Source: Spinacia oleracea
Taxonomy: Eukaryota > Streptophyta > Magnoliopsida > Caryophyllales > Amaranthaceae
Reading direction: 5' to 3'
Assembly: GCF_020520425.1 (NCBI RefSeq)
Contig: NC_079492.1
Coordinates: 144,119,861-144,183,860 of the forward strand
Length of the DNA stretch: 64,000 nucleotides
The notes below the pieces were generated by a model. That model was given only the letters and a program-made list of their open reading frames with translations. It searched no databases and was not told where the DNA came from. Numbering within the stretch: the stretch's first letter is position 1; every line of letters begins with the position of its first letter. This document shows, piece after piece, positions 1,609-47,918 of this stretch. The translations under genes were made by a program, and so were the position numbers.

Positions 1609-1999
1609 TAAAGATGGCCGTGGGCCGGGCCGACCCGATGCCCAACCCGACCCGACACGAAAAAAGCACGGCCCGACACGAGCACGCAAAAAGCACGGCC
1701 CGGCACGGGCACGAAGTCGTGGGCTGTGGGTCGGGCCTGGGCCTTACTTCTTTGGAAAAAGCACGACAAGGCACGACACGACTCGACCCGACACGACAAA
1801 GTACGTTAAATTTAGTCAAATTAGCCTTAGGCATGACACGAAAGCACGTGGGCTTGGGCCGGGCCTGGGCCTTATTTTTAACTTTTCGGCCCGGCACGAC
1901 ACGAAACAACGTGGGCCTGGCGTGGGCCTGGCACGGTTAGGCCCACGACCCGTGGGCTCGCCACGAAGCACGGCCTGGCCCGGCCCACAACCATCTTTA
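1609..1999. mobile_element. hAT-like non-autonomous element filled with a GCACGGCCCGACACG word array
   Basis: The ends are inverted: TAAAGATGGCCGTGGGCC on the left and the complement of TAAAGATGGTTGTGGGCC on the right. They are flanked by a perfect 8-bp duplication, TGTATACC, at 1601-1608 and 2000-2007. TAAAGATG resembles the Tam3 terminus of the hAT superfamily. The 391-bp interior is almost entirely a degenerate array of GC-rich words (cggcccgacacg, gcacgac, gtgggcctgg), far richer in GC than its flanks. It encodes nothing credible; the open frames across it are composition artefacts. Confidence 0.85.
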
Positions 2000-2005
2000 T
2001 GTATA

Positions 2006-2343
2006 CCCCCTCCGTCCCTTAATACTCGCACCAGTTTGACCGGTGTGGAGTTTAAGACATTTAAATTGACTTATTAATTTAATAGGTGTTAGTTGATAGT
2101 GGGGTATTTTTTTTAATATAGTTAGTGGGAAATTGGTAAGAGGTGGAGAGTGGTGAGTGGGGGTGTGAATTTTTAAATGATTTTTTGTAGGGAATAGGGG
2201 TGTAGGTGGGGTTAGTAATTAAGTAAGTGTGAAAAATAATACGGAGTATAATATTGGTAGAAATTTTCATTTATAGAAGCAGTGCAAGTATTAAGGGACG
2301 ACCCAAAAAGGAAAGCGGTGCGAGTATTAAGGGACGGAAGGAG
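2006..2343. mobile_element. Stowaway-like MITE, family 1
   Basis: Inverted ends (CTCCGTCCCTTAATACTCGC on the left, its near-perfect complement ending at 2343) are flanked by TA at 2004-2005 and 2344-2345. The ctccgtccctt start is the usual Stowaway (Tc1/mariner) signature. A second full copy lies at 28271-28595. The left flank is shared with the target duplication of the adjoining hAT-like element. Confidence 0.9.
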
Positions 2344-2345
2344 TA

Positions 2346-3350
2346 ATTGTATTAATAAATTGAAGGTATACTTAATGCATTCACTGATTCACATATTTGT
2401 TAGGTATTGATTGAAGAAAAATTAGTTTGGAACATGTTTTTTGTGGGGTCCATGCATTTCAGGCCCGATCTCTAAGTCTTGAATTATAAAAATTTCAGTC
2501 TCTTATCTGGACCGATTTAGACCGATGAACACCCCTAGGCGAAAGCCCTGAGATCGAGGAGAGAGACACTCCCGATTACAAATTTAAAATAAACTCTTCC
2601 TCAATAAAGATCTGGCCTCATTTCGAGGTTATGAAATCAAACCGCGTTCTATTGTTAAGGATTTAAGGTTGATCGTTTACTTTTCTTTTTGCCTTTTACT
2701 CTAATAAAGCATGACATGGAAAGTTGGACTAGACTGAATGATGTACCATAAATACCAATTCCGCAGGTCATTCCCTTTACCTACCTAACAAAAGGTTAAT
2801 TGAAACTTAATTTCCGTTTGTTTAGACAGAATATCCTTTTCTCGAAAATTCTCAAAAAATAACTTTCCATTTTCATTTGCTTATTTTTTTAAAAGGTTGT
2901 TGAAAAATAATTTTTCCAAGTGAAAACATTCCTTTTTAGAATAATTGTTCATTAAACAAACTTTTATATTTCGTTTTCTCTTTTCCACTTCTATTTTCTT
3001 TTTCAATATATCTTTCTTTGTAAAAAAAAAAAAAATAAACTATTTTACTAATTTGAAAACTAGAATGTACCCATGTTAATGCACGAGATTGATTGTTATA
3101 TATTGGGTGTATGATTGGGTGGTTACGTGAGAAGTTAGTAGGTTAGTTAGTTAGTTATTTTTAGGAATGTTTTATTTTGTTATTTTGAGAAGTTACTCCG
3201 TAGTAGGGTAAGTATTTCTTTTTTTTTTTTGAAGGAAAAATAAAAAATTATATGCAGATTAAAAGGGATTGCATGTAATTGTAAGGATGGAGTTTTGGAG
3301 GTTTGTGATTAAAAGTTGAGCAATTGACATTCTTATTTAATTCATAAACT
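2346..3350. other. Non-coding stretch with one Helitron-like terminus
   Basis: No gene is visible. At 3060-3063 CTAG follows an A and is followed by a weak hairpin-like sequence (cccatgttaatgcacgag), as at the two clearer Helitron 3' ends in this window read on the minus strand. The remainder is AT-rich with homopolymer runs and no recognisable second end. Confidence 0.35.
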
Positions 3351-3764
3351 TTTGTGTTGGACTGCCTAACGGTTATACCATTTTTTTGGTACTAACTAAC
3401 CTAGTATAAAACATAACTAAAGTACTAAAATCATAATTAATTGAATAACAAAATAGTTAAGGTATAAAGACCCGTCAAAAATAAATAAATATATAAAGAC
3501 AAATAGTTATTAATTTTGAACAAACTTATTATTAACTAAAACTCATAAAATTTTAACTAATTGATCTCATTGCTTGACTAATCAGTTTCATTGTTTAACT
3601 AATTGGTTCGGTTGCATAACTATTGGTTTCGTTACTTAACTAATTGAATTTCAGATTTAACTAATTGATTTCAATGATTAACTAATTAGTTAAAGTGCAT
3701 AACTAATTAGTTAAAGTGCATAAAGTGATCTAACCGTTATGCTGTGTTTCCTAAAAGTTTATAT
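3351..3764. repeat. Inverted-end element with internal array of TTAACTAATTGRTTTCATTG words
   Basis: The left end reads cataaacttttgtgttgg then gcctaacggtta. The complement of the right end reads tataaacttttaggaaacac then gcataacggtta, so about 30 bp match imperfectly as inverted ends. Between them (3545-3725) lies a degenerate direct array with a unit of about 20-30 bp containing aactaattg. No clear target duplication was found, so the superfamily is unassigned. Confidence 0.45.
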
Positions 3765-3901
3765 ACTACGTATTTAATTTTACTTTGAAAATTAATTTCC
3801 ATGATAAATTATTTAACTTGTCCGTCAAAACAAATGGAGCATAGATTGGAATAAATGAACATTGCCAACTTCCACAAATAACTTAGCAAAAGGAAGATCT
3901 G

Positions 3902-3909
3902 GCGGGAAA
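3902..3909 (-). promoter_or_regulatory. E2F consensus site in the UBR7 promoter
   Basis: GCGGGAAA on the + strand is TTTCCCGC on the minus strand, an exact match to the plant E2F site TTTSSCGC. It lies about 200 bp upstream of the UBR7 start codon, between intergenic DNA and the pyrimidine-rich leader (about 3966-4000). Binding is inferred from the consensus only. Confidence 0.5.
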
Positions 3910-4108
3910 TATCGTAGCAGTCCCTAAAATCAATGAACTCGAATATAAAAGCCCAAAACCAAACCCCCCTTCTCACTCATTCCCTCTCTCTTACTAACTA
4001 CTTCAGTGCCCCAAATATGCAATTTTCAGCGTTCTGCTAAAAGTTAGGGTTTAATCGCTAATTTATCTCATACAATTTTGCAGTTTTCCTTCTAAATTCT
4101 CACAAACA

Positions 4109-7100
4109 ATGGATGATGTGTTTGAAGATGATAATGAAAAGGAGACCTGCACTCTCAATGAGTACCTGGATGACATCGAAGAACGCGAAATGGTATTTTT
4201 TTCGTCACTTACCTGATTTTAATTAGGGTTTTTGAGTTTTTCTTTAGTTTGATTTGTTATCGCTTGTTTTAATTTGGTTATTAATTTTGATTGCTGGAAG
4301 TGATAATTATGCCGAGCTGCTGATGCATGCTTCAATTTTTTTTTCACTTGTATGATTAATCGGTATGTAGAATTTGCGAATTATTCCGTATTTTCCCTCA
4401 ATAACGTCTTGTTAGAATGAAAATTGTACTAGACTGTTTATGCTTTTACAATGTGCTACTACAGACTATAGCTAATTGGGCAGCCAAAATTGGTTGCTTA
4501 ATGCTTTTGGCGAATTCCGTGCCAGTATTAACATCTGAAGTGGGTTAAGCTTTTTTTTTTTGATTTGTAATTGATTATAACTGTAAATCAAGCTTCTGGA
4601 GGGTTTTATTTGGGATGGAATATCTCAATGGATTGATTGTAAATTCTAAACAATAGAGAGGCAACATGGGGATAGGTACTTGACTATAGTCCGATTAACT
4701 CATTGCCGTGTATAATTTTGTTGGGTAGGACTTAATGAGTCTTTAACTCTTTTTGCTTTCAGGCCTTTAACATGAGAAAGGCTATGTACATTTGAACCCT
4801 CCTAAGCTGAAGGCTTGATATAGGCATTCGAGTAATGATATGATATTGTAACAATACATGGCTCCTCTGAGAAACTACAAGAATTGTTGCATAATCAGTA
4901 AACATTCTACTAGCCTTGTGCTTGTTAAGTGTAAATTTGAATGGTTGTTAGCATCTGATTCCTTCGGTTTTCCACCTCATTTACTCATTGTTGCCACTTT
5001 CTTCCCGCTTACTGCCGGCGATCTTCTGTATATGTATGCTGCAGGCTGCAGCTGAGCGAGTGAGCGGGATTCAATATCAATTCTAATGGTTGGGCTGTTA
5101 GGTTAAATGTTTAGCGTCTTTTTTAGGGTTCTATGAATTAATTAATGTTTAGCAACATCAACTTCAGTGGTTGTCACTTGTCAATACCCGTTTGTATGCA
5201 TCTGTTAGTTGTCCTATGTAATTGTGCTAACTGGCTGTATAAGTTATTAGTTTACATCCACTGCTTCTTCTCATTAGACGTTCATGGCATGACAATGGTT
5301 GTCCGTATAGTACAAACTTAAAATTGTCTGCAAAGAGTAGTTGTATTTCCTTGATCCTATATAACAACATTGTTGTGTTACAGGAAGCTGAAATGGTCTT
5401 GGGTGGTGATGATGGAGATGAGTGTACATACTCGAAAGGTTATTTGAAAAGGCAAGCCATATTTTCATGTTTGACATGCACTCCTGAAGGAAATGCTGGA
5501 TTTTGCACTGCATGTAGCCTTTCTTGCCATGAAGGACACGAGGTAACGTTTATTCTGCTTAGAACGATAGAGGAGGATCTTTCTCCCTGATTTTTGGTTG
5601 CCCTATCTGTCTCAAATTGGTGTGAAGAAAGTTAAAAGTCAATGCAAGGCTATATAAAAGGTAGTAGTATACTTGTATTTTATACGGCTCTTAAGTTTTC
5701 ACATCCCAGAGACCCAAACTTTACAATTTGGCATACATTTATTTGCATTGCTAATTCACACTCGAAATCATGGGATTTCGTGAATGATTTTTTGTTTTTG
5801 GTAAGTAAGAGAAATTTTATTACTTGACCCAACTGAAAGTATACAAAAAAGGAAAGAAGTAGAGACAAGACTCTACCCAGCTTCCTAAAACAACAACTTA
5901 AACACAAGCACAAAAGCCAAACAACATGTAAGCACCAATTAGGCAATTACAGGGACTGCAACCAGTCCAAATCTGATCGAGTGACCTTCTTCTTCAGCAA
6001 ATTCTTCACTCTTTCCTTCACGCAAAACTTGATCTCCTGCACTGTTTTATACACTCCTGTTATTTTGGAGTTCCAAAGAACATTATTCCTCTCCTTCCAG
6101 ATCATGTAACCTGTAGCCACAACAGCAGAAACAATAATCTGCTGTCTAAATCGTGGGCCCTTATATAATTTCTGTTAGCCCAAGACAACAGTTTGGGGAA
6201 CTCTGTGGTAAGTGCCCTTATACCAAGCCACTCTTTATTCAGCTCTATACACTGGAAACTGTAATGGCATTCAAAGAACAAGTGCTTGTGGGATTCAGAA
6301 CTATGATCGCAAATAACACAACGATCACTCTGGTAGACTCCTATCTTGTGAAGTCTGCACCTAGTTTGCAGCCTCTCGTGCATTATCAGCCACGCCACAA
6401 ATCTGTGTTTAGGATTATTATAATGATTCCGCACTAGCTTACACCAATGCAGATTCTGACTCAGCTCAACTAGTTTAGAGTATATTTGAGCAACTGCGAA
6501 CTTACTTTGATTTAACCAAGCATTACCTAAGTGATGTGTCAGGTTGTCTCTAGCCTTGCACATGTGCTTAAGAGCCCAACTGGCATAAATGAAATATTTT
6601 TTAGTTATATTGAACAATTAAATTCAGAATTTCGGCTTGTCCTAACACGACGAGTCGCTGAAAAGTTCCCACCAAATATCTTCAGTTCTTCACTGGCTTG
6701 ATTTCATTTTATTTATCAGTTATGGGCGAATGACGCAATAAATCAAATTTATAATGTCTACATTAGTTGGAGAATATCATGTAAACTAAAACTGCTTCTT
6801 AAGATGGTCATTTAATAGAAACAAAAGTGAATGCAGAATGGGGGTGGCTTGGTATGGAGTTCTTGCCTTTTGTGTTCTTCATGTTTATTTTTCAGTAAAC
6901 GCTTGATACCATTTTTCTGACTATCCAATCTCACAATGCAACTGAATTTTGTTTGCATATGCATTCCTTGACTAATTATTCTCTATACTCCTGATTATTT
7001 GAGATGCCCTTCTCTGATATTTCATGCCTGTTCTAATGGCTGATGTTTAGTATTCTGCTTCTTGAAATTTTGATGTAAGCAAGAATTTTTCTTTTCCATT

Positions 7101-12684: not shown

Positions 12685-12686
12685 TA

Positions 12687-16949: not shown

Positions 16950-16956
16950 TGGTTTT

Positions 16957-23310: not shown

Positions 23311-23885
23311 ACTATAATTGGAAAAGTTTATCTTTTAAAGTCTTGTAATAAATTGTTAAACTCGAGGTGGCTTTGAAAATTCAATGATGTTTAAAGTTTC
23401 TTTCATTTGGGTCATTTTCTTTCTTGTCAAGTGCCCTATCTTCCATGCAAACACCAATCCTTGTTAAACGGGGTAAAAGATAATAGGCTACTTTGACGAA
23501 ATAAGTCTTTGTTCCCTCTTAGACTCTTTACTATTGGAGACTTGGAGTGTTGTGTGAGAAATAAGTTCGTGTGACTTGTACGTATACCAAGATCAATTTA
23601 CAACTAAAATTATTTCCATGGATTCATATAACTCACATTTAGGTATCCAGAACCCAAATAAAATTATAAGTTTATAAAAATAAAAAATTGGGTGTAAATG
23701 AGCCACGAGGATAATATTTTTACAAATTTATGTGGGAGATTCGAACGTAAATATGTTATACCTATTGTATACAAGAGTTTTAATCACTACGTCAAAATCT
23801 GGGAAGTTTATTTAACTTTATAGCGTGGACGATAAGGATGATGCACCAACCATATTCATATTATCTCGTATTGAAACATTTTCGG

Positions 23886-24984
23886 TAGGGGTGTCAAATC
23901 GGATCAACGGATCGGGTTTGGGTCGGACTCATCGGATTCGGGTTGAAACGGATCGAATTGGAACAGATTAATTTGGCTAACAGGTCGGGTCGGATCGGAT
24001 TAAAAACTTAACGGGTCGGATCGGGTCGGATATTTTATGCACTGGTTCATATCAGATCGGGTTGTAGTCGGGTCGGATCGGATTGGAACATGACGAATTG
24101 TTAACGGGTTTAGCCGGATTATAACGGGTTCGGATTCATATCGTTGGATTCATATCGGATCGGATTTATATCGGATCGAATTAATCGGGTAACAGACTAA
24201 CACGGGTCGGATTGGGTTATTATCGGATCAGGTTATTCGGTAGTGGTTGGAATTCGAGTCGGGTCCATTTGGTTCCAAATTATATAATTATAATATCGAT
24301 GACTTAATTAGGAGACGAAAACGATAACTAACTTTTAAAAGTAATAGGAATTTAAGATCAGTAATATAAGTCATTGAGTATATAGTATATAACTTAGTTT
24401 AATACTACATCCGTTCCTGAAAGTTCTTTACGCCTTAAATCTACATCAATTACAAGTTTCATTTGAGCAGAGTATATAAAGGGAGAATGAAGTACAAGTA
24501 CACCGTATAACTAATAGTCATACGCTTAATTGGTAGTGCAACATAATTAATGTTCTCTTATGGGTTGTGAATGGTTTGGGTTAAACGGGTTCAGATCGAA
24601 ATTGGTTCGGATCAAACGAGTCATGTGCTGAAAAGCTTCGGATTAAACGGGTCATGGGTTGAAACGGTTCAGATTAAATGGGTCACGGATTATACGGATT
24701 CTCCTCAGGTTGGAACGGATTCGATTTCAAACGGATCGGATCATAAACGGGTTCCGGATCGCTTCGGTTCGGATTAAACGGATTCGGATTGTCACGGATC
24801 GGTCTGTTATCGGATTCGGATCTTAATCGGATCAATATTAACGGGTTGGATCGGATACGGGTTGAATATAATCGGACCGGACCGAATTTCGGATCTTAGC
24901 TCGCGGTTTCTAAACGGTTTGGATTCTAAACGGTCGGACAAACCCATCGGGTTCACTAGGTCGGATTGAGAATTAACATCCCTA
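23886..24984. mobile_element. hAT-like element filled with CGGATCGG and AAACGG word arrays
   Basis: The left end TAGGGGTGTCAAA pairs with right end TTAACATCCCTA (10 of 12 inverted). Flanks attttcgg and attcccgg agree at 6 of 8, fitting an aged hAT 8-bp duplication. Two arrays fill most of the interior. 23890-24250 is mainly cggatcgg and gggtcgg; 24560-24960 adds many AAACGG, including near 24583, 24645, 24662, 24729, 24744 and 24911. A plain AT-rich stretch at about 24290-24555 separates them and may include a damaged Stowaway fragment (from about 24406). It is non-coding. Confidence 0.75.
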
Positions 24985-25331
24985 ATTCCCGGTGTTCTAA
25001 GCTACGTGGTAATGGTATATAGTACTTGTTGAAAACTTATGATCGACCTTTTTGATATTCTTGAACAATTTTATAGAGGACCAATAAAATAATTAAGTAT
25101 TGTAGTATGAAAACTATACAATTAATCAAATTTTAGGGGTGGAACTAAAATACACTATGAAATTTTTTACCTCCACTCTCATCCAAGCCATAACAAAGAT
25201 CCGACGTTGTCTACCGGCCCGTCAACAGAAGCCCAAAAGTCTTGAGAGTAGCGGATGGACGAATGGTAAAATATTTATACCCATGAAAGCACCCTTAGCG
25301 AAACTTAAAAGAGTAAAAAAGAGTGAAGTGA

Positions 25332-25445: not shown

Positions 25446-26476
25446 GGGGGCGTTTGGTTCACACGGGGTAAACGAAATGGAATCAAGAATGAGATAGAAG
25501 GGGAATGGGAAAGAAACCCTTTGATTTAAAAAGTTGTTTGGGATGTTTTTTTCATTTTCCATTGATCTTCTCCCCCAATGCCTCGCTTGCTCCCTCCTCC
25601 CTCCCTCCGCCGCCCACCCGACCTCCGCCCTCCCTTCGCCGCCCACCCGACCTCCGCCCTCCCTCCGCCGCCCACCCAACCACCTTTTCTTGCTCCCTAT
25701 GCCGCCATGCCTCCCCCTCCGTCGCCCTCCTTCCGTCGCCCTCCCTCTACTTTTATCTTCTCACAATTTTATTGATGAATTTAATGTTTAAATGTTCTAA
25801 TTCGACTATGAAATCCTCAGATCTGAAGATTCCACAGCCGAATTTGACCATTTCAAGACATGATTTGCACAAAAAAGGTAATTTTCATTCTAATTCTTGT
25901 TTTTCTTCAAGTTTTTAGGGTTGGGGTGGATTTCGGGGTGGTGGTGGCGACAGGTCTGAGGGTGGTTTCGGGTGGTGGGGGCGGGTCAGGGGGTAGTTTC
26001 GGGTGGTGGGGGTGTTTTCGGGTGGTGTTGGTGGTGTTTGGGTAGTTTCGGGTGGTAAGGGTGGGTAAGGGGGTGTTTTCGGGTGGTGTTGGTGGGTTTT
26101 GGGGGTGGTTTCGGGTAGTGGGGGTGGGTAAGGGGTGTTTTCAGGTGGTTTTGGGGTGGTTTCGGGTAGTGGTGGTTGAGTGGTGATGTCCGTGTGGGGG
26201 TGGTGCAGGTGGCTATGTGGTGGTCAGGTGACCATTGGGTGTTATAAGGTGGTCAAGGTTAGTTGAATGGTGGTCAACGTTTTTTTGGAGTGTTGGGGGA
26301 ATGGGAATGGAAAAGTATAGGGGGGGTGGGGAGTCAAGGTAGAAGGTTTTTGGGGTAACCCAAAAATGAAATTGGGTAAAGAAAATGGTGAAACATGCCA
26401 AACAAACAATAACAAAGAGAATGATATCAGTCCATTCCCTTTCCCTTTTCTGAAAACCCTCAACCAAACACCCGCC
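25446..26476. mobile_element. GGCGTTTGGTT-ended element with C-rich and G-rich minisatellites
   Basis: The left end gggggcgtttggttcacacg and the complement of the right end ggcgggtgtttggttgag are inverted; ccaag flanks both sides. The subterminal ggaatcaagaatgagat matches the 34655-34926 MITE, so this is a longer relative. The interior holds a C-rich minisatellite (25590-25745, unit about 25 bp, cctccgccctcc), then 25770-25918, which looks like captured genic DNA (a possible GT-AG pair around 25879-25918). A G-rich array of ggtggtttcgggtggtgggg follows (25920-26200). Open frames across the arrays are compositional. Confidence 0.6.
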
Positions 26477-26564: not shown

Positions 26565-26755
26565 CAGGGGCGAAGCATAGTGAGGGCCTAGGTAGGCCAT
26601 GGCCCCCCCTGAAGGCCCAACCACACCTATTAAATAAAAGACTAACAAGTTAACATTAGATAGTTTTCTATTGGACTGGCCCCCCTAAACGGCTAAGCCC
26701 ACCTGCTTAATTAGTGTTCGGCCCCCCTTGATAACCGAGTCTAGTTTCGCCCCTG
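26565..26755. mobile_element. hAT MITE with perfect 8-bp duplication
   Basis: The ends CAGGGGCGAAGC and the complement of ctagtttcgcccctg are inverted. CTTGAGAC is duplicated exactly at 26557-26564 and 26756-26763. CAGGGGCG is a classic hAT terminus. It is 191 bp long and non-coding. Confidence 0.9.
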
Positions 26756-28646: not shown

Positions 28647-29079
28647 TCTGTAAGAATAATAATAGACTTAATATTGCAATCAATCGCCCATCTAATCCCT
28701 GTCAGGCAAGCCTGAGCCTCTGCTTGAATCGCTGATTCCGCATACCCATAGTTGGCGCCCCCCGCACCCTTCCTGCCTCGGACCTAACGCGCAAAAAATT
28801 CCCAAAGTCGCAGTATGAATAGTATAGTTAAAAAACAAATGGTGCAATATTTCCGAAACGGATGAAGTATTCGTAGTATTAAATAATAAAATACACCGCT
28901 AAATGCTCATTGTTTCAGTGGTTATTTCTTGATTTATTAACTCATGTGGGCTCTTTAGTTCGAATCTTGTATACTACAATATAACTATGCCATGAGATCA
29001 AAATAATTGGGAAATGAATTTTTATTTTGTTTGGTTGGTTGAATTTTGTTTAATTTTTTTAAAAAATTTACGTGATTAA

Positions 29080-29271
29080 GGCCCTGTTCTGTTCACCTTA
29101 TTTTCACTTATTTTAGGAAAAATAAGTTCAAATAAGTTCAGTTCAGATAAGATAAGTTCAGGAAAAATAAGGGTGGGCCAAGTACAATTTATAACTAAAA
29201 TAAGTTTTGATAAGTTCAGATAAGTTCAGTTCAGGAAAAATAAGTGGAAATCAGGTGAACAGAACGCAGCC
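29080..29271. mobile_element. Tourist-like (PIF/Harbinger) MITE with AAGTTCA words
   Basis: The ends GGCCCTGTTCTGTTCACCT and the complement of aggtgaacagaacgcagcc are inverted. TAA is duplicated at 29077-29079 and 29272-29274. The interior is a degenerate array of aataagttcagataagttca words. Confidence 0.85.
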
Positions 29272-29826
29272 TAAGTATCTCGATAATTGGTTTATAGCAA
29301 GATTAGTTTGCAAGCATAGAAGTAGTTGTATGATAAGAGCTAATTAATGGAGGATAAAGATAAGGAGTCCGACGAGGCGAATGAAGAGGGATAAAGATAT
29401 ATAGCTGGGATATCACATATTTGACATTGAATTTGAATAGTTGATCTTAACAGTTAGGTAGCTTGGAAGTTGTAATTCACTAATTTGTACAATTAATTGG
29501 GTACGTACAACTTTTGGTTGAATTGAGTTTAATTAGGGCATTTTATTATAAGGATAAATATATTATATATGGGGCCTTGATCATTATGATTGTTGGTTAT
29601 TCATAATGTGTTAGATGTGTTATTTGTACGCATCAGTTCACTATTACAATGGCAACTACTCCGTAGTAATTACTTAGTTGTACTCTCTCTAAGAAGATTG
29701 TATTAGGACGGTCACGGTATAGCTCCGTAGCTTTCAACCCTTAACCACTCGTTTCATGCCGATAATTTTAAATTTTTAACGGGAATGATTTTGTATGTTA
29801 AGCGAATGTTTATTCATAAGAATGTT

Positions 29827-35390: not shown

Positions 35391-35773
35391 ACTCATTGAT
35401 GTAGTCGATGGCTATTCCTTGTAATAACATTTTGGTGGATATTTGGGTAAATTTGATTTCACTTTGAGATATTATTGTTGCTGTTTCAACCTCAGTGAAG
35501 GATAGGCAGCATTGGTTGGACTGGTCAGTACACATCAACAAGGTTGATTCACCAGTTGATGTATACCTTACCATATGTTTGAAAATACCATATACTGAAT
35601 GGAAATCATACCATGATTGCAATATTTTCAACTTCTGAGATATTAAGCTATGTTCAATAAGTTGCACCTATTCGTGGTATTATGCGAACTATATTATCTT
35701 ATACTACATATTTTGTTGATTATAATCTAGATTGATTTTCCTGCATTAAAGCTCCTTTATATATATTGCTTAT

Positions 35774-36260
35774 TAGGGGTGAGCACAACATGGTACCCTA
35801 TTAAAATTTCAGGAACCAGAACTTGAACCTTACAAGTTCCTTAAAATGGGAACCGGAACCGGAATCTGTTGCAACAGATTCCTGAAAATGAACAGGTTCC
35901 AATTCTGTCATTTTAAAAATTTAAATAAAGTATTTCTAATTTATTGAAAAAAAAAATCTACTTTATGGTTTGGACTTTGATTGTTTTATAGTTTGGGTTT
36001 AAGATGTAATTCTATATTTATATTTTCCAAACATTAGCTTGGATTGTTTTATATTTTGGCATATGAAGCATTTTTATATGGGGTGCGATTCCTTATTTTG
36101 GGTACTCCATATTAGAATTGGTGTATACAGGATACTCGTTCCAAAAAATTGAGAACCGGAACCTGTTGCAACAAGTTCCCAAATTTGTTACCCGGAACTT
36201 TGCGGTTCCTAACAGGTTCCGGTTCCGATTCATGGTACCCTGACTTTTTGCTCTCCCCTA
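35774..36260. mobile_element. hAT-like element filled with GGAACCGGAACC words
   Basis: TAGGGGTGAGCA and the complement TAGGGGAGAGCA are terminal inverted repeats. TTGCTTAT is duplicated perfectly at 35766-35773 and 36261-36268. Both flanks of the interior (35805-35930, 36130-36240) are arrays of ggaacc, ggttcc and acaggttcc words, in opposite senses on the two sides, around an AT-rich centre. It is non-coding and sits between KGD4 and NdhS. Confidence 0.88.
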
Positions 36261-36523
36261 TTGCTTATCTGGTAATACCAGAGCTTCCTGGGAGGCTGGG
36301 ACTTAAACCTGCAGTGCTTGCCAGTCTGCTACACAGTTTATGTTAATCCTAGATTACCTTGATGAATTGGGAATAATTACAGTACAAAACGTAGTAGATT
36401 GGGAATGCAGAAGTGCAGAACAACCTTTAACTTGTGTTTTTATTTCTGAGTAAACAGATGAGATTAGTTCCAGTTTTTGAACTGTACAATACAAACAGGA
36501 CTAAACACAGGTCAGTGAAAAGC

Positions 36524-37285
36524 TTACTGAGGTATGTCACTACTTGTTGTTGATGATTGTTTTTCAAGCATTTCAATCATAGGTTCAAGCACAACAGACT
36601 TTGGATTCGTCATTGGTGGGCCCTTCTCTCTCCTCTCAAGCTCCTCAAGCCTGAAGGTAATCAGCCTATCCCAATTCCCTCCTTCAAACAGCACTCCAGC
36701 TTTACCATCAGTAATCCTCTGCACAATACCACAATACATATAGTATGGATTGTTCGGGTTCTTAACAAGGGCGATCATTCCCGGCAACAACAATGGCAAT
36801 TCAGGTGGTTTCGACTTCTTTGAATTCATTACCATCTTCATTTCTTCATCTCCTTTATTCTTTTTAGGTGGTGGTGGGTTTTTCTCGATGAATTTCCTGA
36901 GGCCTGTTTCGCCACCAGGAAATCCACCAGTAAGGCCTAAAAGCTCCTTATCGAAAGCACCTTCTGGTATTTTCTCATCAATTTTTGAGGTTTCAACTGC
37001 TTTGTCATCCAAATCTTCCTCTTTGTTTTTCTCGGTTTTTTGTTGTGGTGGGATTGGACTTTCTTTCTTTAGCTCTTCAATGATGCCAGTTTCGCCGTTG
37101 CATAAACCTCTGCCACCTAAGATTCCGTACAGATCAAATTTAGCAGAAACTGTGATTGTTGTTTTGGGACATGAAGTGGAGATTGATCTTTGAGTTAGTA
37201 GTTTGATGTGGTTTTGGCCAAGAAATTGGGATTTGTGAAGAAGGGCACCTTGGAAGCTTGGGGGTGATAAGGAAGAAGATGCCAT
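36524..37285 (-). CDS. ndhS: Chloroplast NDH complex subunit S (NdhS/CRR31)
   Basis: A single-exon frame of 253 residues. Residues 1 to about 47 are Ser/Thr-rich and basic, a typical chloroplast transit peptide. The mature part begins AKFDLYGILGGRGLCNGE (about 48-65). A charged Pro/Lys linker leads to a second FDKELLGLTGGFPGGETGL block (111-129), and the SH3-like NdhS domain follows at about 163-225 (LLPGMIALVKNPNNPYYMYCGIVQRI, VLFEGGNWDRLITF). NdhS sits on the stromal arm of the thylakoid NDH complex and forms the docking site for ferredoxin in cyclic electron flow (established for Arabidopsis CRR31). Length and domain order fit an intact gene. It converges on KGD4, 1.1 kb away. Confidence 0.95.
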   Translation of the reverse strand: MASSSLSPPSFQGALLHKSQFLGQNHIKLLTQRSISTSCPKTTITVSAKFDLYGILGGRGLCNGETGIIEELKKESPIPPQQKTEKNKEEDLDDKAVETSKIDEKIPEGAFDKELLGLTGGFPGGETGLRKFIEKNPPPPKKNKGDEEMKMVMNSKKSKPPELPLLLPGMIALVKNPNNPYYMYCGIVQRITDGKAGVLFEGGNWDRLITFRLEELERREKGPPMTNPKSVVLEPMIEMLEKQSSTTSSDIPQ

Positions 37286-37591
37286 AATTGCCTAAATTCA
37301 GTTTTCAGTAAGAGAGAGATAGAGAGAAAGAGAAAGTGTGTGTTGTTATTCTGAATTCTGACCACATAATTCCGGTGGGGTTTGATTCTGATCACATGTT
37401 AGCACAATACAAAAGCCATTGGCCTTCGATCAGTCAAATTCTTTGTAGGCTTCTATAGCTCATTTGGCAAGGTAAAATCTTGTACCAGTACGTAACAATC
37501 TCACAACGAAAAAAGTTTCAAATTTTAAGTGCGACTACTTTAACTTCTTTTATTTATCTTTTTGGACACAAGTTCAACATATTTAAATATA

Positions 37592-39377
37592 CGGATATTT
37601 CATGAAATACCCCCGAGTTTTGAAGTAATTCACCAAATGCCCATCAAGTTCCAATAATTCACCAAATACCCCTGACAATTGACTTAATGCCCAAAATACC
37701 CTTACTTTTAACGGTCCGTTGGTCCGCCGTTAGCCTAGTTTCATAATTCACCAAATACCCCTATTATTAAACTTATTTCACCAAATGCCCCAAACTTAAT
37801 AATAGTTATTCTGATGTTCCAACGACTAGTTTTTTCGTTTGAAAAGTAGCTGTTGGTCTTGCTTAGCTATAAAAACCCATTTTCTGAATGTTTCTTGTAA
37901 TTTAGATGTTGTTTTGCTTTGCTTTGCCAATTTCATTAGATTCGTGTCATGAGTTTTGTTTCAAAATCATCATCCACACACAATGAGTCCACATATATTA
38001 GAGTACCTAACCAATTTTGCTATTATGATAGGAAATTTGTCATCTGAAGCTCCGATACCACACTCAATAATCCACAAAGGTTGTACTACAAGTGTGATCT
38101 TTGCAACAATCTGAGATGGTGCTAGGAAGTAGTTGAGCAAGAAAACAGGGGGCAACATCATGAAGGACAATACAGGGGAAGCTTAGACGAAAGAGAAAGT
38201 ACTGAAAATAGGGGAAACAGTAAGATGCAATAGGACTTGAAGCAAATGAAGAAAAAGTTGATACTGTAATGTCAATACAAGGCATCTTACTTTGATTTTG
38301 AAATGAAGAAAGGCTAATCCTATTTATGTCATGGTTTGGGATGGACAGGCAGAACTTAGGACTCAGGAGAGCATGCAAGTACTTTTAGCAAAGAAAGGTT
38401 AGGACTTCAGAGAACTCTTAGCAAAGAAATTGGGAGGCAACCAACATGTGAAAGAAGTCCGAGGGAAGGGTCTTATTATTGGTATAGAGTTGGATGTACA
38501 AGTTGGCCCGCTAGTTGATGCTTGTCGAAATTCAGGAATGTTAAATTGTTAATATTAACTGTTGGAAAAGGAAAATAGTGAGATTGGTTCCTCCACTGAC
38601 CATATTAGGACAGGAGCTCGAAACAGGTTCTGAGATTCTCCTCAAGTGTTTCCCGTCCCTGGGTTGAAGCAGTTGAGTTGAATTTGTGTACGATGAGTCG
38701 ATGCTTGTCAAATTTCCTTGTGACATCAATAGATCCAAAGCTCATAATTGGCATCGTAGCTGTAAATCAGGAATAAGTTTTCCTACTAGCTTCTCTTTGG
38801 ATTATGCCTTGGGTTTAATGTACAAATTGTCATTTCAAGATATCCCACTCGTTAATCAGAACATTGATTTTCTTTGATGCTTGGATTCTTTTCATAAGTA
38901 TCTTTCTCCCTTATTATAAGGCTTAGTTTGTTATTTTGATACCTATAAATTGTGTAGCTTTGTATTGAGTGGAACACACAATCAACATTATTATTTTCTC
39001 TTCTTACTACGTTTGTTCATAATTAGCCTTTAGATATTATCACGACTTTAGTGGATCAAGAAGGCATAAGCAAACAATAAGCAACGACTAATTTTCAAAC
39101 GAAAAAACTAGCCATTGGAACATCAGAATAACTATTTTTAAGGTTGGGGCATTTGGTGAAATAAGTTTAATAATAGGGGTATTTGGTGAAATAACTTTTT
39201 AAAAAAAGGGGCATTTGGTGAATTATGAAACTAGGCTAACGGCGGACCAAGGGACCGTTATCAGTAAGGGTATTTTGGGCATTAAGTCAATTGTCAGGGG
39301 TATTTGGTGAATTATTGGAACTTGATGGGCATTTGGTGAATTACTTCAAAACTCGGGGGTATTTCATGAAATATCCG
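37592..39377 (+). mobile_element. Mutator-like element with about 270-bp inverted ends and a captured gene piece (Pack-MULE-like)
   Basis: 37592-37868 and 39070-39377 are long inverted repeats: cggatatttcatgaaatac on the left, its complement on the right. They are rich in ttcaccaaatRccccY words, and each ends inward at ctagttttttcgtttgaaaa. Long inverted ends are typical of MULEs. The 1.2-kb interior carries an acetylornithine aminotransferase fragment and no transposase. Flanks ttaaatata and ttttttcta agree at only 5 of 9, so a target duplication is not established. Confidence 0.8.
38377..38667 (+). pseudogene. Captured C-terminal fragment of acetylornithine aminotransferase
   Basis: The + strand reads [20 protein letters not shown], then [20 protein letters not shown] and CRNSGMLN. 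In another frame it continues LTVGKGK and IVRLVPPLTILGQELETGSEILLKC. This is the conserved C-terminal end of the class III aminotransferase of arginine synthesis (VRGxGLIxGIEL, ASPLVDACRxxG, VRLVPPL). A TAG precedes DFREL, and there are frameshifts after GMLN and after LTVGKGK, so it is a dead copy of a host gene. No intron is visible across roughly 95 codons. It lies inside the MULE-like ends. Confidence 0.8.
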
Positions 39378-39429
39378 TTTTTTCTATTAATGATATTGTT
39401 ACAGAGTATTCCAGTTTTTAGCCTGAGAG

Positions 39430-40091
39430 ACTTTTTTTTTTTTTTACATAAACTTAAAGAAACAAAACTAAGTAAAATTATTAAAAGACATAAGAAAAGT
39501 CGAAGCCTCTCTTGGTAGGTTATGTGCTTGGTGAACTCTTTCACGATCAACGTTGTTGATGCAACAACAATCAAAGGTCATGCCAATCAATTTGATCTTC
39601 TCAAGCGTCCATTTTAGTTGCATATCCAAGACATTTACTTGCTGACGCAAGTCAATAAGCCTCTTTGAATCTGTAAGGATTGTAACTCTGTGGTACTCAC
39701 CTTGTGAAGCCCATTGAAGACCCAAAAGGCACGCATTGGCTTCCGTTTGTAAAGTAGAAGCAGCTGATCCAGTTTGTGCACCTCCCAGGATTGTCGTTGT
39801 TCCCGTTAATTGTCCATCCAACTCCAAGTACCAACCCATACCTGCATTCCTAGTATCTTTGTGCGGTTGTGCCAAGATCCATTTATCACATTGTTTGTAA
39901 TATCTCCTAGTAATTCATTACCTTTGATGATAACCCTATACTATCTAAGGGCTTTCTCCCTTTGCAACAAGGAGGATAAGGAAGTTCTATCTCCGAAGGG
40001 TGGTAATGATAGTCCAAGGAGTGTATTTTATTAGTACACTATTGACTTTTTGGTTGACTAGGAACAACCGAGTTTTCAGGAATGAAGCACG
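39430..40091 (-). mobile_element. LINE fragment with 5' inversion (twin-priming type)
   Basis: AGCCTGAGA is duplicated at 39420-39428 and 40092-40100, and a T-run follows the left copy (the A-tail of a minus-strand insert). The minus strand at 39468-39875 encodes the L1 RNase H domain (LGGAQTGSAASTLQTEANAC, ILTDSKRLIDL, NNVDRERVHQAHNLPREAS). Beyond it, about 40040-40090, the + strand reads LTRNNRVFRNEARA, the segment that normally lies upstream of RNase H, so that part is inverted. Confidence 0.75.
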
Positions 40092-40239
40092 AGCCTGAGA
40101 AATTTATTATTATCTTAATCAAGTTTACATATATAGTCTTTCTCAAATACGTTGTACACATATTATCAAAAATAAAATGAAATAGGAGTACTTGTTTAAT
40201 TACATGTATATGCGTAATTCAAAATTGTGTTGCAGACAC

Positions 40240-40412
40240 TTGTTTTTTTGATGTACCATCCGATTTACCTTTAGGGCTAATTCGGATTCGGAGCGAGTTC
40301 TGAGTGGTTATGTTCCAGTCACCTCCCAATTGTTGTTGAGGGGGATCGAACACGAGATCCTCCCTACCAAGTTCAGCCTCAATCACCACTGAACTAACAG
40401 GCAACTGGTAGT
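40240..40412 (-). mobile_element. tRNA-derived SINE
   Basis: On the minus strand: tgcctgttagttcagtggtg (A-box) then ctcgtgttcgatccccc (B-box), a 100-bp body and a short A-tail (T-run near 40240). Flanks agacacttg and agatacatg agree at 7 of 9. Confidence 0.65.
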
Positions 40413-40562
40413 TATAGATACATGTTTAAAGGGTTATACGTAGTAATTATGAAGGTGTGTCATGTAAAGCATAAATTTGCACATAATACATTAAATTATT
40501 AACTTTTTTTAGGCGAAATTATAAAGTGAGCTACATGTGTAATATTGGTTGGTTGTTAAATC

Positions 40563-41600
40563 TAGGGCTGTCAAAAAGTGATTCGATTCAAGAAACCGAT
40601 CGACATCCGAACTGAATATATTCGAGAAGTAGATGCTCTTGAAACCGATCCGACATTGATCCGAAATCCGATTTGACCCGTCAATCAAAGACTCGAACCT
40701 GATCCACTAACAATCCGAGGAGACCCGTGACCCGATTAGTATCTGACTAGTTTTAACCGAACCCGCATCCGACCCAATGACAATCCGAAATTCGATTTTA
40801 CCCGATAACAACTGCAATCGGCCCGACCCAATAAAACCCGATATCCGGTTTAACCCGATCTGAATGAACCCGAAATCGACTTTCAACCGAATTTTGGATG
40901 TATGCTTCAATGTGTCTTGAAAAGTGTAAAGATCAAATTTGGACGGAGAGACTAGAATTCTAAAAAATCATTATTTGGCAAGAAATATTAGAATAATAAA
41001 GTGATCCGAATTTGATAGTGAACTCGAGAGTTACTCGATCAATAAAACGTAAGATTACCCAACCCGATTTTAGCTTGAACCGCAACCGCAAACTCAATTC
41101 GTTAATGACCCGGATCTGAGTACGACCGATCCTAACTTGACCCGAACCCGAGACTCACGATCCAAACTTGACCGGAACCCGAGACTTTATCCGATCCAAA
41201 CATGAACCGCTCGCGCAGTAAACCAGTTAAAATAATAACTGGATCCGGCATACACCCGAACCCGAGACTTATCCGATCCGGACATGACTCGTACCTGCTG
41301 TAGACGGTCAAAATAGCAACTGCATCCGACATACACCCGAACCAAACTAGACCCGAACCAAATAAAACCGATACAAAACCGTTTTAAACCCGAACCGGTT
41401 CTACCCGAACCCGAGATTTAACCGAACCGAAATTACCCGAACCGAAACCGACTCAAACCCGAAACAATATATTACCTGACTTCATCCGAACCCGAAGTTA
41501 TCCGAACCGATTTGAATTGACCCGATATTATTTGATTTCAACAAGACCCGGACCGTTTATAACCAAGCCGAAACCGATTCGATGACCCAATTTGACACTA
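40563..41600. mobile_element. hAT-like element filled with ACCCGAACCGA words
   Basis: The left end TAGGGCTGTCAAA pairs with right end TTTGACACTA. Flanks gttaaatc (40555-40562) and gtgaaatc (41601-41608) agree at 7 of 8. Almost the whole 1,038 bp is a degenerate array of acccgaacc, gatccga and ccgacc words, interrupted by a short AT-rich part near 40895-41010. The complement of these words resembles the cggatcgg/ggttcgg words of the 23886-24984 element. It is non-coding. Confidence 0.8.
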
Positions 41601-41914
41601 GTGAAATCTACCCTCCAACTTGAAAGTGACAAGTAGGCCCTGTAAGTTTCATCAATTGGTGGAATAATATTTTCACGTATTGAAAACCATGATTTGAACC
41701 AATCATATTTCCTGATGAAATTCTTATCGAAATTACCTAATGTGGTCCAATAAGTGACTAGGGTCATCAATCCAATTATATTTTATGGTAAAATTCTTAC
41801 GTGAGTATAAAAATTCTCTGATGGAGGAGGTCTCATTATTAAGTTGGTCATGTTTTCCGGCAAAATCCTTATTGAGTGAATTAGTCTCACTAAGCACAAT
41901 CCAATTTTTCAGTG

Positions 41915-42000
41915 GATGTCAACTAGCTTAGTTGGTAAAGTATTAAGTGGCTCTCTCAACACCAAAATAATTGTTAATGAAAGTCTTTGTTTCACCCATT
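41915..42000 (+). mobile_element. Decayed tRNA-derived SINE head
   Basis: tcaactagcttagttggtaa then agtattaagtggctctctca matches the family at 16957-17292 (complement) and 25332-25432. The B-box has decayed. Confidence 0.45.
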
Positions 42001-42780
42001 GTAAAATTCTAACTTTTTTCCCCCCGCAAATCATGATATTGTGTTTGTCCTATTCATTCTGGTTTAATTTCATTTTCCTTTCACAAACAAAATTTACTCG
42101 AACTTAACTAAAGTTATTAGAATTTATTAAACACATATCTTAGTTGTAAGTTGTGCTTGAAAATATTCCGACCCATCTGATTTTTATCTTTTATCTTTAT
42201 TATATATGGAGTACAATAAATTGAAAATTAGGTGAACGGAATATGAATTATGTAACTTTTTTATGCGATTACAAATGCGCTATTAAATACAAAGTAGGAC
42301 GTAGAGTAATGATTAACAAATGTTCTAATTCTCAATATACTTTTATGGCTATTAGGGTATATGAGACACAAAGGTAAGGGAACTCAATACTCCGTACGTT
42401 ATTTTGGCTCAAGTTTTACAAATATTCATACCCAAACTTACAAAATTATATCATGTTTTTCAGGTTGGATCGGGCTTCGTACCGAACTTTACTTTTAACA
42501 ATTTATCATAATCCCTGAAATAAATTTTGTGCTCTCTGAACTCTCAAATTATTCGGGCTAAATCGGGCCGAGCGAATGATGATCAATTCTCTGGCGGGCC
42601 ATAATAAGTCAGATAATGTTTGCCGAGTACTACAACAACAACAACAACAACAACAACAATCAGATCAGAAATTCAGAATGTGTGACAATTGATCATAAAT
42701 TGATAATACAAGACGTATTCTTCTTCCCCATTGGTCGATTTTTTTAAAATATTTTTTAGCTTTTCACAGCACTAAACACA
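42001..42780. other. Intergenic; CAA microsatellite at 42633-42659
   Basis: No gene is visible. About nine CAA repeats sit roughly 150 bp upstream of the PH gene's leader exon, followed by a CT-rich leader (42800-42840). Confidence 0.6.
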
Positions 42781-45195: not shown

Positions 45196-45221
45196 CCATT
45201 TTGGAGAAAAGAAGTTCCTTA

Positions 45222-47177
45222 ATGGGTGATGGACCTAGAACTATAGAGATCATACCAAATTATTTTGAGACCTCAGCTTCCGCAGATTCTCCCCTACCCA
45301 GAAGTTCAGATACTTCAATATCTGGTGAAGATTCTCCTCATACATCAACATCTGGCACACCATCTCATCTAGAAAGAAATTCGTTCTCTTCAAATACAAG
45401 TACCAACAGTGCCATCAGGTACCTTTAAAAAAATAAAAATAAAACATAGGAGTATTGTTTTTAGTTGATTCTTATCATTATTTTCCTTCCTTTGACCTCA
45501 GCATTGTTCAGAATCGTTCATTGTCTAAGAATAAGTTCCGAACTGCTTCATTCATGTTGAGGTTATTTAGTTTGAAGGGGCTACGGAATATCACTGGTCT
45601 TAATGGTGATGAAAAGGTAAATACAGTTAACTTCGCTTACTCTTCTTTCATCTTTGAGATAAGAATGTAATCTGACTCTTTTCATCTTCAACTTGCAGGT
45701 TGAGTTGAGTGCTGTAGAATTAGAATCCCTTCGATCAGAACTTGCTGATGTAGAAGAAAGAGAGGCCCATTTTAAAGCACAGTATGAAATTTGTATTTTC
45801 CTCTTGTATACATGCATTGAACTGACCAAATTATTGTATTCTCTCATTAACATATTGCCTCTAATATAGGTTGGAACATCTTGATGAAATTTTGCGGTGG
45901 TCTCGATTATCAGGATACTTGAATATGAGAACAGTAAGTTTCGTATTAGTCTAAGTTCGTCTTATAACACACACACACAAAAAAAAAAAAAAAAAACAAA
46001 AAGAAGCTGTAATATTAGCAATATTAGGACCAACTATAAAACTCCATATTACTTGCATTTTGATGCAATTATTTTTTGAAATCTTTCAGCGATGGTCAGC
46101 ACTACCAGGTGAACTACCTCCTATTGATGATTGTGATGTTGATGACTGGGTCCCACGCTTTACAGTCCTGCAAGGATCATGTATCTTCTTCTACCTGTCT
46201 TCTACAGGTAACAGATTTCTTTGTGCATTTTCTTCAAACTTTTATTCATCGCGACATGTTTAATGAATATAACTATACTGGAGTATTTATTTTTGATGGT
46301 ATCTTTGAGTTATAAGTGCTCCCAAGATGTGTCATATTAAGAAGTCAGAAATGAAGGGATTTTTCTTGATGAACCTGTTGGATCGTTTTGCTTATATTGG
46401 AATTAATTATGCTCCGTATTCACTATGGAATAGAGGGAGCACTTTATGTTGTCATATTTTGAGCCGTGTTTGAAAGTCTAATTCAAACTGTGCATATGTT
46501 TTTTTTCCTTTTCCCTTATTTTGGTGGAGTGTTGCCGTGTTTGTGCATGTGTCGAAGTTTTTAGTTTCATTGGAACATATTTTTGTACTTGTTTGTGCGT
46601 AATATTGGAGAAAAGTTTGTGGAGTTTGATTGCATAGGAACTTATTACCTGATAGTCTGATAAAGCTGCTGCAGATTTAAGTCCTCAGGATTCAGCTCTT
46701 CTTTCCGATATTGTTGAAATAGGCTCATTGCCAAGTATAGTTCGAGAAGGTGAAGAAATTTGGCACTGCTTTTACATTGTTACCCGTCATGGACTTAGAA
46801 TTGAGTGTGCCAGTGGCTCCGAAATACAGGTAAATCCATCAACTTTCCCTCCACTTTATATAATTTGTTATTTGTCACTTATTAGTAATGTCATTTATAA
46901 CTATTACAGTAAATCTTAACTGAGCAGACTCTGCAATGAACTTGTATGAAATTTCATAACTTTTTTTTGTTAGATTTCTGTTCTTAGCGTAGATTCGTGT
47001 ATTTCAATTGGAATTCTGGGTTTAGTGTTCTTGATTGTTTTCTGATGCTGGGATCTTAACTTCATGGCACAGGTTGATTCATGGTTAAGAGCGTTACGGA
47101 CAGAATGCAAGCTCAGACCTGATAAAATAGACCCTGGTGATCAAAATTGTGAAGGCAGCTCTCAACATTGTATATAG
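45222..47177 (+). CDS. PH-domain protein with coiled coil (At4g23895-like)
   Basis: Seven phase-consistent coding exons: 45222-45418, 45502-45616, 45699-45781, 45870-45933, 46090-46207, 46675-46829 and 47073-47177. They give 278 residues. The N-terminal 70 residues are Ser/Thr-rich and likely disordered. A coiled coil follows (about 105-142, VELESLRSELADVEEREAHF). Then comes a pleckstrin-homology-like fold (about 154-262: WVPRFTVLQGSCIFFYLSST, the acidic loop, CFYIVTRHGLRIECASGSEI, and the closing helix VDSWLRALRTEC). PH domains bind phosphoinositides or protein partners; the ligand is not predictable here. It lies 1 kb upstream of NDPK in the same direction, as I recall in Arabidopsis (At4g23895/At4g23900). 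Confidence 0.85.
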
Positions 47178-47614
47178 CTATGAAAAACTAAAGCTATTGA
47201 AAATGTCTCAGTTTGACTTGCTAAAATTTGTCATTGGCTTGTAAATATAACCACATTCAAGGTAAATAAAGGTGTTAACATTGGACAGAATAACTTGTGA
47301 CATCTTCGATTTTGAATGAAATATGTCACATTCGGCTACAAAATATCCGAAATTTCTCAGCTTATATCTACTAATGAAATTCACAAAACGTTCTAACAAC
47401 TTCGAAAACTTCCAAATCACTTGCAAGATTGGCAAATTTTGAAAATCTTGAAGATTTATTCATCATTTCGCGTTTTTGGCACTTCTTGATGTAAGACGAT
47501 TTAGGCCACAGGCTCATGAGTAGCAGCAATGTGCTTGACCCTTCGTGCCCCTATGACACTACGAGCAATAGCATCAATCATCATGGAAGGAACCTCTCAA
47601 ATCCCACATTCATT
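47178..47614. other. 3' flank of the PH gene
   Basis: Probable 3' UTR and spacer. Open frames on the minus strand carry no recognisable motif. Confidence 0.5.
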
Positions 47615-47918
47615 TAAAGATGGCACTGGGTTAGCCGATTAGACATGAAAAAAGCACGATCAGACAATGGCATGGAACAAACAAGGCCTGACACGAGCAA
47701 GGCACGACTAGACATGTCAAAACACGTTAAATTGAGTGAAATTAGACTTAGACATGAAAGCATGATCCGACCCGACACGTGGACTTGGGCCGTGCCGCCT
47801 TTTGAAATTTCGACACAGATCGTCTCGACAAGAAACAAGTGGACTTGCATGAATCGTTCCTTTTAGTACCAAGCCACGTGATCTCGACACGAAATACGGC
47901 CCTACCCAACCATCTTTA
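47615..47918. mobile_element. hAT-like element of the TAAAGATGG family in the NDPK promoter
   Basis: The left end TAAAGATGGCACTGGGTTAG pairs with the complement of the right end (TAAAGATGGTTGGGTAGGG). Flanks cattcatt (47607-47614) and catacatt (47919-47926) agree at 7 of 8. The interior words (gcacgacta, gacacgag, gacatg) are a decayed version of the 1609-1999 array. It ends about 230 bp upstream of the NDPK start codon. Confidence 0.82.

What the first reader, a model, noticed from the sequence alone, without database searches (positions are those of the whole stretch)
1609..47918. Several hAT-ended elements whose interiors are each a degenerate array of one short GC-rich word
Five elements (1609-1999, 23886-24984, 35774-36260, 40563-41600, 47615-47918) have hAT-like ends and 8-bp flanking duplications (two perfect, two at 7/8, one at 6/8). 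Their interiors are nearly all near-repeats of a 6-14 bp word, different in each lineage. hAT transposases are known to bind short subterminal motifs (AAACGG for maize Ac). My inference is that these arrays are transposase-binding sites that expanded until they fill the element, each word recording the specificity of its own transposase. Such arrays are usually written off as low complexity, so they may be an under-described class of element.
Basis: partly seen in the sequence, partly recalled or inferred. Interest (0 to 1): 0.8.

Follow-up and report, generated by a model that had tools for sequence, protein, structure and literature searches.

The report
Plant hAT transposons with repeat-filled arms
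Five short plant jumping-gene relics of the hAT kind are really there, and three of them are largely built from many degenerate copies of a short CG-containing word that plausibly were docking sites for the enzyme that moved them; this is an extreme form of a known arrangement rather than a new class.

Summary
All five elements have matching ends at the stated coordinates; flanking 8-bp duplications are 8/8 (E1, E3), 7/8 (E4, E5) and 6/8 (E2). All are 1.1 kb or shorter, too small for a transposase gene, so they are non-autonomous hAT-type elements. But the five are three lineages: E1 and E5 are one family; E2 and E4 share ends and the same word on opposite strands (TCGGRT 34:0 in E2, 0:33 in E4). 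Only E1, E2 and E4 are array-filled (about 75% of bases). E3 is a fold-back element, 42% covered, with an AT-rich centre; E5 is a decayed relative of E1 (21%). A sixth hAT-type element (26565-26755) is not array-filled, and a Tourist-like element is array-rich without hAT ends, so array filling is no hAT hallmark. New details: in E2 and E4 words run on one strand through both arms, begin 14-31 bp from the tips and spare a centre; CGG cores sit about 5.2-5.4 bp apart. Best explanation: expanded subterminal transposase-binding repeats, as in Ac, Tag1, Hermes and Herves. Binding is inferred; no plant genome or autonomous partner could be searched. hATpin MITEs and Galileo are close precedents. 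New member of a known kind.

The parts
1601..1608 (.). E1 left target duplication TGTATACC
   Evidence: identical to 2000-2007
1609..1999 (.). E1, 391 bp non-autonomous hAT-type element; ends TAAAGATGG; interior array of CACGA, GCACGGCC and GTGGGCC words (CACGA 12:1 by strand), 61% GC
   Evidence: recovered by the scan; hairpin z -5.6
2000..2007 (.). E1 right target duplication TGTATACC
23878..23885 (.). E2 left target duplication ATTTTCGG (6/8)
23886..24984 (+). E2, 1099 bp hAT-type element; TCGGRT 34 on + strand, 0 on - strand
23886..24275 (+). E2 arm 1: 31 CGG cores, first CGGDT word (D = A, G or T) 14 bp from the tip; core spacing 5.17 bp
24276..24555 (.). E2 centre without CGGDT words, 28% GC, holding a possible nested Stowaway-like insertion at about 24405-24492
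   Evidence: (326 bp from one word start to the next); Stowaway reading by eye
24556..24984 (+). E2 arm 2: 33 CGG cores, 8 AAACGG; core spacing 5.22 bp; last word ends 18 bp from the tip
24985..24992 (.). E2 right target duplication ATTCCCGG (6/8)
35766..35773 (.). E3 left target duplication TTGCTTAT
35774..36260 (.). E3, 487 bp fold-back hAT-type element; ends TAGGGGTGAGCA; GGAACC/GGTTCC on both strands (4:4); centre 35911-36134 is 25% GC, arms 42 and 47%
   Evidence: (fold z -5.8)
36261..36268 (.). E3 right target duplication TTGCTTAT
40555..40562 (.). E4 left target duplication GTTAAATC (7/8)
40563..41600 (-). E4, 1038 bp; same kind of ends and same word as E2, on the other strand (TCGGRT 0 on +, 33 on -); right end is shorter than the left terminal repeat, as if bases were lost
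41601..41608 (.). E4 right target duplication GTGAAATC (7/8)
47607..47614 (.). E5 left target duplication CATTCATT (7/8)
47615..47918 (.). E5, 304 bp, decayed relative of E1 (228 of 288 aligned bases identical; gaps apart); array mostly lost
47919..47926 (.). E5 right target duplication CATACATT (7/8)

Best explanation
These are old, non-autonomous hAT-type transposons of a plant, from three lineages (E1+E5; E2+E4; E3). Shown: ends, flanking duplications, size too small for a transposase gene, word arrays on both sides of a word-free centre in E2 and E4, words on one strand only in E2 and E4 and nearly so for CACGA in E1 (12:1). Inferred: the words are subterminal binding sites for the zinc-finger (BED) domains of a hAT transposase supplied in trans, multiplied by tandem duplication in one direction, because extra copies raise local transposase binding and so the chance of being moved. 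A one-directional array makes the left and right ends differ in site polarity, which would suit hAT transposases that prefer unlike ends. Later the arrays decayed (E5).
For: Ends and duplications. Array statistics. In E2 CGGDT words begin 14 bp and end 18 bp from the tips with a 326-bp central gap; in E4 24 and 31 bp with a 119-bp gap. TCGGRT 34:0 and 0:33; inverted near-copy pairs are at shuffle level in E2 (z 0.5) and E4 (z 1.6). The same words hardly cluster elsewhere in the window. Known hAT transposases bind short subterminal repeats: Ac AAACGG, of which three copies at the 5' end were shown to be required (PMC3260210, passages); Tag1 AAACCC left and TGACCC right, Herves C(G/A)ATTCAT, with unlike binding of the two ends (PMC3143072, passages); Hermes AAG(T/C), LE-STR2 to STR7 antisense and RE-STR1 to STR5 sense, phasing of the left-end repeats said to be crucial (PMC10368747, section 8, part 1 of section 17 and passages). 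E2 has 9 AAACGG (0.33 per kb outside the hAT-type elements), E4 has 6 TGACCC (0.22 per kb). [quoted passage not shown] 2013 as cited in PMC4079207, passage).
Against: No transposase, autonomous copy or binding data; no plant genome could be searched. Array-rich stretches also occur in a Tourist-like element and in sequence without recognised ends, so plain slippage needs no transposase. A sixth hAT-type element has little array (0.15). About 50 words per kb (57 in 1099 and 57 in 1038 bp) far exceeds the three Ac sites required; mutating putative BED sites in the Hermes left end left about 70% activity (passage). AAACGG and TGACCC are easily made by any CGG/CCC-rich array; AAACCC is at most 3 per element. 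In recalled, only partly checked Ac ends both orientations occur (5' end 10 CGG and 12 CCG, 3' end 16 and 5), unlike E2/E4.
Confidence: 0.55

Rival explanations
1. Neutral tandem expansion: replication slippage or unequal exchange multiplied a short seed inside small transposons that carry no coding constraint; the words have no function.
For: Strict one-strand orientation is what tandem duplication of one seed gives. Longer tandem units (31 and 16 bp in E2; 31, 81 and 15 bp in E4) are nested in the arrays (self-match peaks). Array-rich stretches also occur in a Tourist-like element and in sequence without hAT ends, some of them with a near-5-bp period too.
Against: Words sit next to both tips and spare the centre in E2 and E4. 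E2 and E4 align poorly (best local score 32 in the word-matched orientation, 23 in the other, no shuffle control) yet share the word and its density.
Confidence: 0.28
2. The arrays are host-factor sites or CpG-dense bait: short words that bind a host transcription or chromatin protein and were spread by the element.
For: [quoted passage not shown] CpG observed/expected is 1.85 in E2 and 1.71 in E4 against 0.65 for the window. E1 has 5 GTGGGCC on both strands together, which resembles the TCP-protein site (recalled).
Against: The E2F-like pattern TT[CG][CG]CGC (recalled) is absent from 5 of 5 elements. The words differ between lineages, which different transposases predict more simply than a shared host factor.
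Confidence: 0.09
3. Chiefly structural: the arms form hairpins (hATpin-like) and the repeats serve base-pairing.
For: E1 and E3 fold far better than 100 shuffles each (z -5.6 and -5.8).
Against: E5 does not (z -0.8), nor do E2 and E4, either cut to 987 and 1000 bases (z 0.5 and 0.0; 20 shuffles) or whole (z 1.0 and 0.2; 25 shuffles). Their words show no excess of inverted near-copies.
Confidence: 0.06

Closest known systems
hATpin MITE-like hAT elements (Moreno-Vazquez et al. 2005; sugar beet hATpin derivatives, Menzel et al. 2012)
   Same: Going by the titles, plant MITE-like hAT elements that form highly stable secondary structures; E3 and E1 fold stably.
   Different: E2 and E4 do not fold and carry one-strand arrays. 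Neither paper is held; only the titles were seen in reference lists.
Subterminal repeats of Ac/Ds, Tag1, Hermes, Herves, Kat1
   Same: Short degenerate words near the ends; unlike arrangement of the two ends in several of them.
   Different: Here the words fill nearly all of each arm, in dozens of copies and one polarity; the Ac end CAGGGATGAAA (recalled) is not present.
Galileo and Tetris: tandem repeats inside the terminal repeats
   Same: Galileo's repeats contain extra transposase-binding sites, and more repeats are suggested to raise transposition (passage).
   Different: Foldback-like Drosophila elements, Galileo with a THAP-domain transposase; Tetris units are about 220 bp, not 5-10 bp.
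SIMPLEHAT families of Arabidopsis
   Same: The name and my recollection suggest hAT elements with simple-repeat-like interiors.
   Different: Only found as a search term in a listing of 12 papers, none opened; structure recalled, not checked.

Membership tests
hAT superfamily (non-autonomous) | 8-bp target-site duplication | tested here: met
   8/8 in 2 of 5, 7/8 in 2, 6/8 in 1
hAT superfamily (non-autonomous) | short terminal inverted repeats | tested here: met
   5 of 5; E4's right end is shortened
hAT superfamily (non-autonomous) | mobilisation by a hAT transposase with the same ends | not testable with these tools
   No genome held; all 5 are 304-1099 bp; longest stop-to-stop frame overlapping E2 is 70 aa, E4 86 aa
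hATpin | highly stable secondary structure | tested here: inconclusive
   Met by E1 and E3; not by E2, E4 and E5
Ac/Ds | 11-bp CAGGGATGAAA end (sequence recalled) | tested here: not met
   Ends are TAGGG... or TAAAGATGG
Ac/Ds | three or more subterminal AAACGG | tested here: inconclusive
   Met by E2 only (9, on one strand, counted over the whole element); E4 has 2, E1, E3 and E5 none
Tag1-like | AAACCC at one end and TGACCC at the other | tested here: inconclusive
   E4 TGACCC 6:0 and AAACCC 3:0; separation by end not tested

The most novel reading that the evidence does not exclude
The E2/E4 lineage keeps its transposase sites in one polarity and at about half-helical-turn spacing through the element (5.17 and 5.22 bp in E2's arms; 5.3-5.4 in E4's), so that the arms act as a phased landing pad for BED domains and the polarity tells left end from right. 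In both arms of E2, and in the smaller arm of E4, the phase holds better than when the same gaps are shuffled; it does not in E4's larger arm.
Probability: 0.13. Interest if true: 0.65.

Novelty: new member of a known kind. Interest (0 to 1): 0.36.

Why it matters
If the words are binding sites, such elements are readable fossils of the DNA preference of hAT transposases whose genes may be gone, and word, polarity and spacing could be tested directly with a BED domain from the same lineage. It also warns that stretches masked as low complexity in plant genomes may be transposons with defined ends.

Tried and rejected
Five independent lineages: rejected (E1/E5 align at 228 of 288 bases, score without the tips 115 against at most -6 in 200 shuffles; E2/E4 share ends and word).

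Arm-specific words: of eight Fisher tests on E2 and E4, AAACGG in E2 (1 of 31 CGG cores in arm 1, 8 of 33 in arm 2) gave p 0.027 and GGTCGG (7 of 31, 2 of 33) p 0.078; the other six gave 0.11-0.58, so nothing is claimed.

Half-turn phasing as a general rule: not supported. Against gap shuffling (500 shuffles): CGG marks E2 arms 0.002 and 0.002, E4 0.76 (larger arm), 0.006 (smaller), 0.23 (whole); CGGRT marks E2 0.004 and 0.036, E4 0.93, 0.036, 0.18; CGG.T marks E2 0.004 and 0.026, E4 0.71, 0.010, 0.13. CpG marks (1000 shuffles): E2 0.002 and 0.008, E4 0.59 and 0.023, E1 0.48 (arms 0.66, 0.88), E5 0.58. Of eight tests on five non-hAT stretches one gave 0.009 (3.5-kb array, but 0.17 against random positions), one 0.058 (Mutator-like arm), the other six 0.69-0.99. 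A near-5-bp period as such, against random positions, is also present in the Tourist-like array (p 0.001 and 0.010) and the Mutator-like arm (0.013), so only the long-range coherence of E2 is unusual. The recalled Ac ends show no significant phasing (p 0.22 and 0.067 against random positions). Nested tandem units of 31 or 16 bp could give E2's coherence without selection. Coherence across both arms of E2 (p 0.002, CGG marks) is not informative because the period was fitted.

Relatives in other collections: five window-derived patterns in viral contigs gave 2, 6, 0, 46 and 0 stretches, and one end pattern in genome contigs gave 0. Of the 54 loci (54 records on disk) one had 6 or more TCGGRT in 600 bp (7, in a 68% GC contig); the others were not looked at further and are taken as chance. 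Literature: 10 of 10 searches used. Searching word and end strings as text listed 5 papers, none on plant transposons by title. This does not show that such elements are undescribed: I saw listings and passages, and the hATpin papers are not in the library.
Full report
What is there. I take the window as plant DNA from its content (an NdhS gene on the minus strand at 36524-37291, Pfam E 8.5e-29, and the kinds of transposon present); no whole genome is held. The five elements exist at the stated coordinates with matching ends and 8-bp flanking duplications of 8/8, 6/8, 8/8, 7/8 and 7/8 for E1 to E5. A scan of the window for perfect 8-bp duplications with inverted ends (at least 9 of 12) returned 10 pairs, against 0-4 (mean 1.8) in 10 simulated windows; E1 and E3 are among them, as are a sixth hAT-type element at 26565-26755 (CTTGAGAC, ends CAGGGGCGAAGC) and a match inside the long terminal repeats of a Mutator-like element; the other six may be chance. 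E2, E4 and E5 rest on ends plus 6-7 of 8.

Lineages. E1 and E5 share the TAAAGATGG end and align at 228 of 288 bases; without the tips the score is 115 against at most -6 in 200 shuffles. E2 and E4 share TAGGG[GC]TGTCAAA ends. Their words look different as printed because they lie on opposite strands: TCGGAT 25:0 in E2 and 0:13 in E4, TCGGGT 9:0 and 0:20, TCGGTT 1:0 and 0:11. E3 (TAGGGGTGAGCA) is the third lineage.

How much is array. Using 8-mers with at least three near-copies (one mismatch) on the same strand, coverage is E1 0.76, E2 0.74, E4 0.74, E3 0.42, E5 0.21, sixth hAT-type element 0.15; shuffle means are 0.04, 0.42, 0.43, 0.13, 0.01 and 0.00. The shuffle level is high for E2 and E4 because their length makes near-copies common; the pair counts (z 52 and 31) are the fairer measure. 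Controls without hAT ends also score: Tourist-like element 29079-29272 0.54, 3540-3730 0.55, 25560-26300 0.65, left arm of the Mutator-like element 0.36. In the sliding-window test the top window was the 3.5-kb array, not a hAT element. So array-rich stretches are not peculiar to hAT elements here, whereas these particular words nearly are: outside the six hAT-type elements the densest 600 bp holds 7 TCGGRT on one strand (at 25.97 kb) against 22 and 21 in E2 and E4, and the densest 350 bp 3 CACGA against 12 in E1.

Anatomy. In E2 the CGGDT words (57; D = A, G or T) begin 14 bp from one tip, end 18 bp from the other and leave a central gap of 326 bp; in E4 (57) the figures are 24, 31 and 119 bp. 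E2's centre is 28% GC against 46% in each arm. The TCGGRT words stand on one strand through both arms; inverted near-copies are at shuffle level. In E3 GGAACC and GGTTCC are mirrored (4:4), the centre is 25% GC and the element folds strongly (z -5.8), as does E1 (z -5.6); E5 (z -0.8), E2 and E4 do not, cut or whole. CGG cores lie at multiples of about 5.2 bp in E2 and 5.3-5.4 bp in E4, near half a helical turn. Against random positions this is strong in both arms of both elements (p 0.002 in each, CGG marks); against shuffling of the same gaps it holds in both arms of E2 and the smaller arm of E4, not in E4's larger arm nor in E1 or E5. A near-5-bp period as such also occurs in the Tourist-like array, and the recalled Ac ends show none. 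I treat phasing as a lead.

Mechanism. hAT transposases recognise short subterminal repeats; a small number can suffice (three for Ac), the repeats are often degenerate, and the two ends are usually unlike (Herves, Ac and Tag1; Hermes; Kat1: where the polarity of the repeats is said to differ between the two ends). In Hermes the left-end repeats 2-7 are antisense and the right-end repeats 1-5 sense; if both are read inward from their own tip, which the text I saw does not state outright, they point the same way along the element, as in E2 and E4. That reading is mine. The inferred history is: a hAT derivative kept its tips and binding words, one-directional tandem duplication multiplied the words, and copies with many words were favoured or at least tolerated. 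Selection is not shown. The main rival, neutral slippage, explains polarity equally well and explains the Tourist-like array too; it does not by itself explain why words lie next to both tips and spare the centre.

Against the reading. E2 has 9 AAACGG and E4 6 TGACCC, but a CGG-rich array makes such hexamers easily, and AAACCC is at most 3 per element. Hermes keeps about 70% activity when putative BED sites in its left end are mutated (passage), so dozens of sites are not needed there. In the recalled Ac ends both orientations occur (10 CGG and 12 CCG; 16 and 5).

Known or new. hATpin MITEs (titles seen in reference lists; papers not held) and Galileo's tandem binding-site repeats (passage) cover the two halves of the idea. 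In the listings and passages I saw from searches of an open-access library I met no description of one-strand, array-filled hAT elements, which is weak evidence. I file these as new members of a known kind, with polarity and spacing as the part worth testing.

Noticed in passing
37586-39383: Mutator-like (Pack-MULE-like) element: inverted arms of 186 nt (96%) and 125 nt (89%), words GGGGYATTTGGTGAAWTA about 30 bp apart; the interior frame 38403-38552 matches aminotransferase class III (Pfam E 3.2e-4, below the curated cut-off), suggesting a captured gene fragment. A 9-bp duplication is only about 6/9 by eye.
   Followed up: partly
26565-26755: Sixth hAT-type MITE, perfect duplication CTTGAGAC, ends CAGGGGCGAAGC, little array (coverage 0.15; a few GGCCCCCC words by eye).
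   Followed up: yes
29079-29272: Tourist-like element (TAA flanks and ends GGCCCTGTTCTGTTCACC, by eye) rich in ATAAGTTCAG words: array-rich interior outside hAT.
   Followed up: partly
25560-26300: GC-rich array: CCTCCGCC/CCACCCGA words on the left, GGTGGTTTCGGGTGG on the right, which look partly inverted to each other; no element ends established.
   Followed up: partly
3540-3730: AT-rich array of a 21-bp TTAACTAATTGATCTCATTGC-like unit; possible TAACGGTTA ends at 3367 and 3739 by eye, no duplication seen.
   Followed up: no
24405-24492: Possible nested Stowaway-like insertion with TA flanks inside the word-free centre of E2, by eye.
   Followed up: no
6102-6617 and 39468-39914, minus strand: Retroelement remnants: zf-RVT (E 3.9e-17) and RVT_3 (E 1.7e-10).
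   Followed up: no
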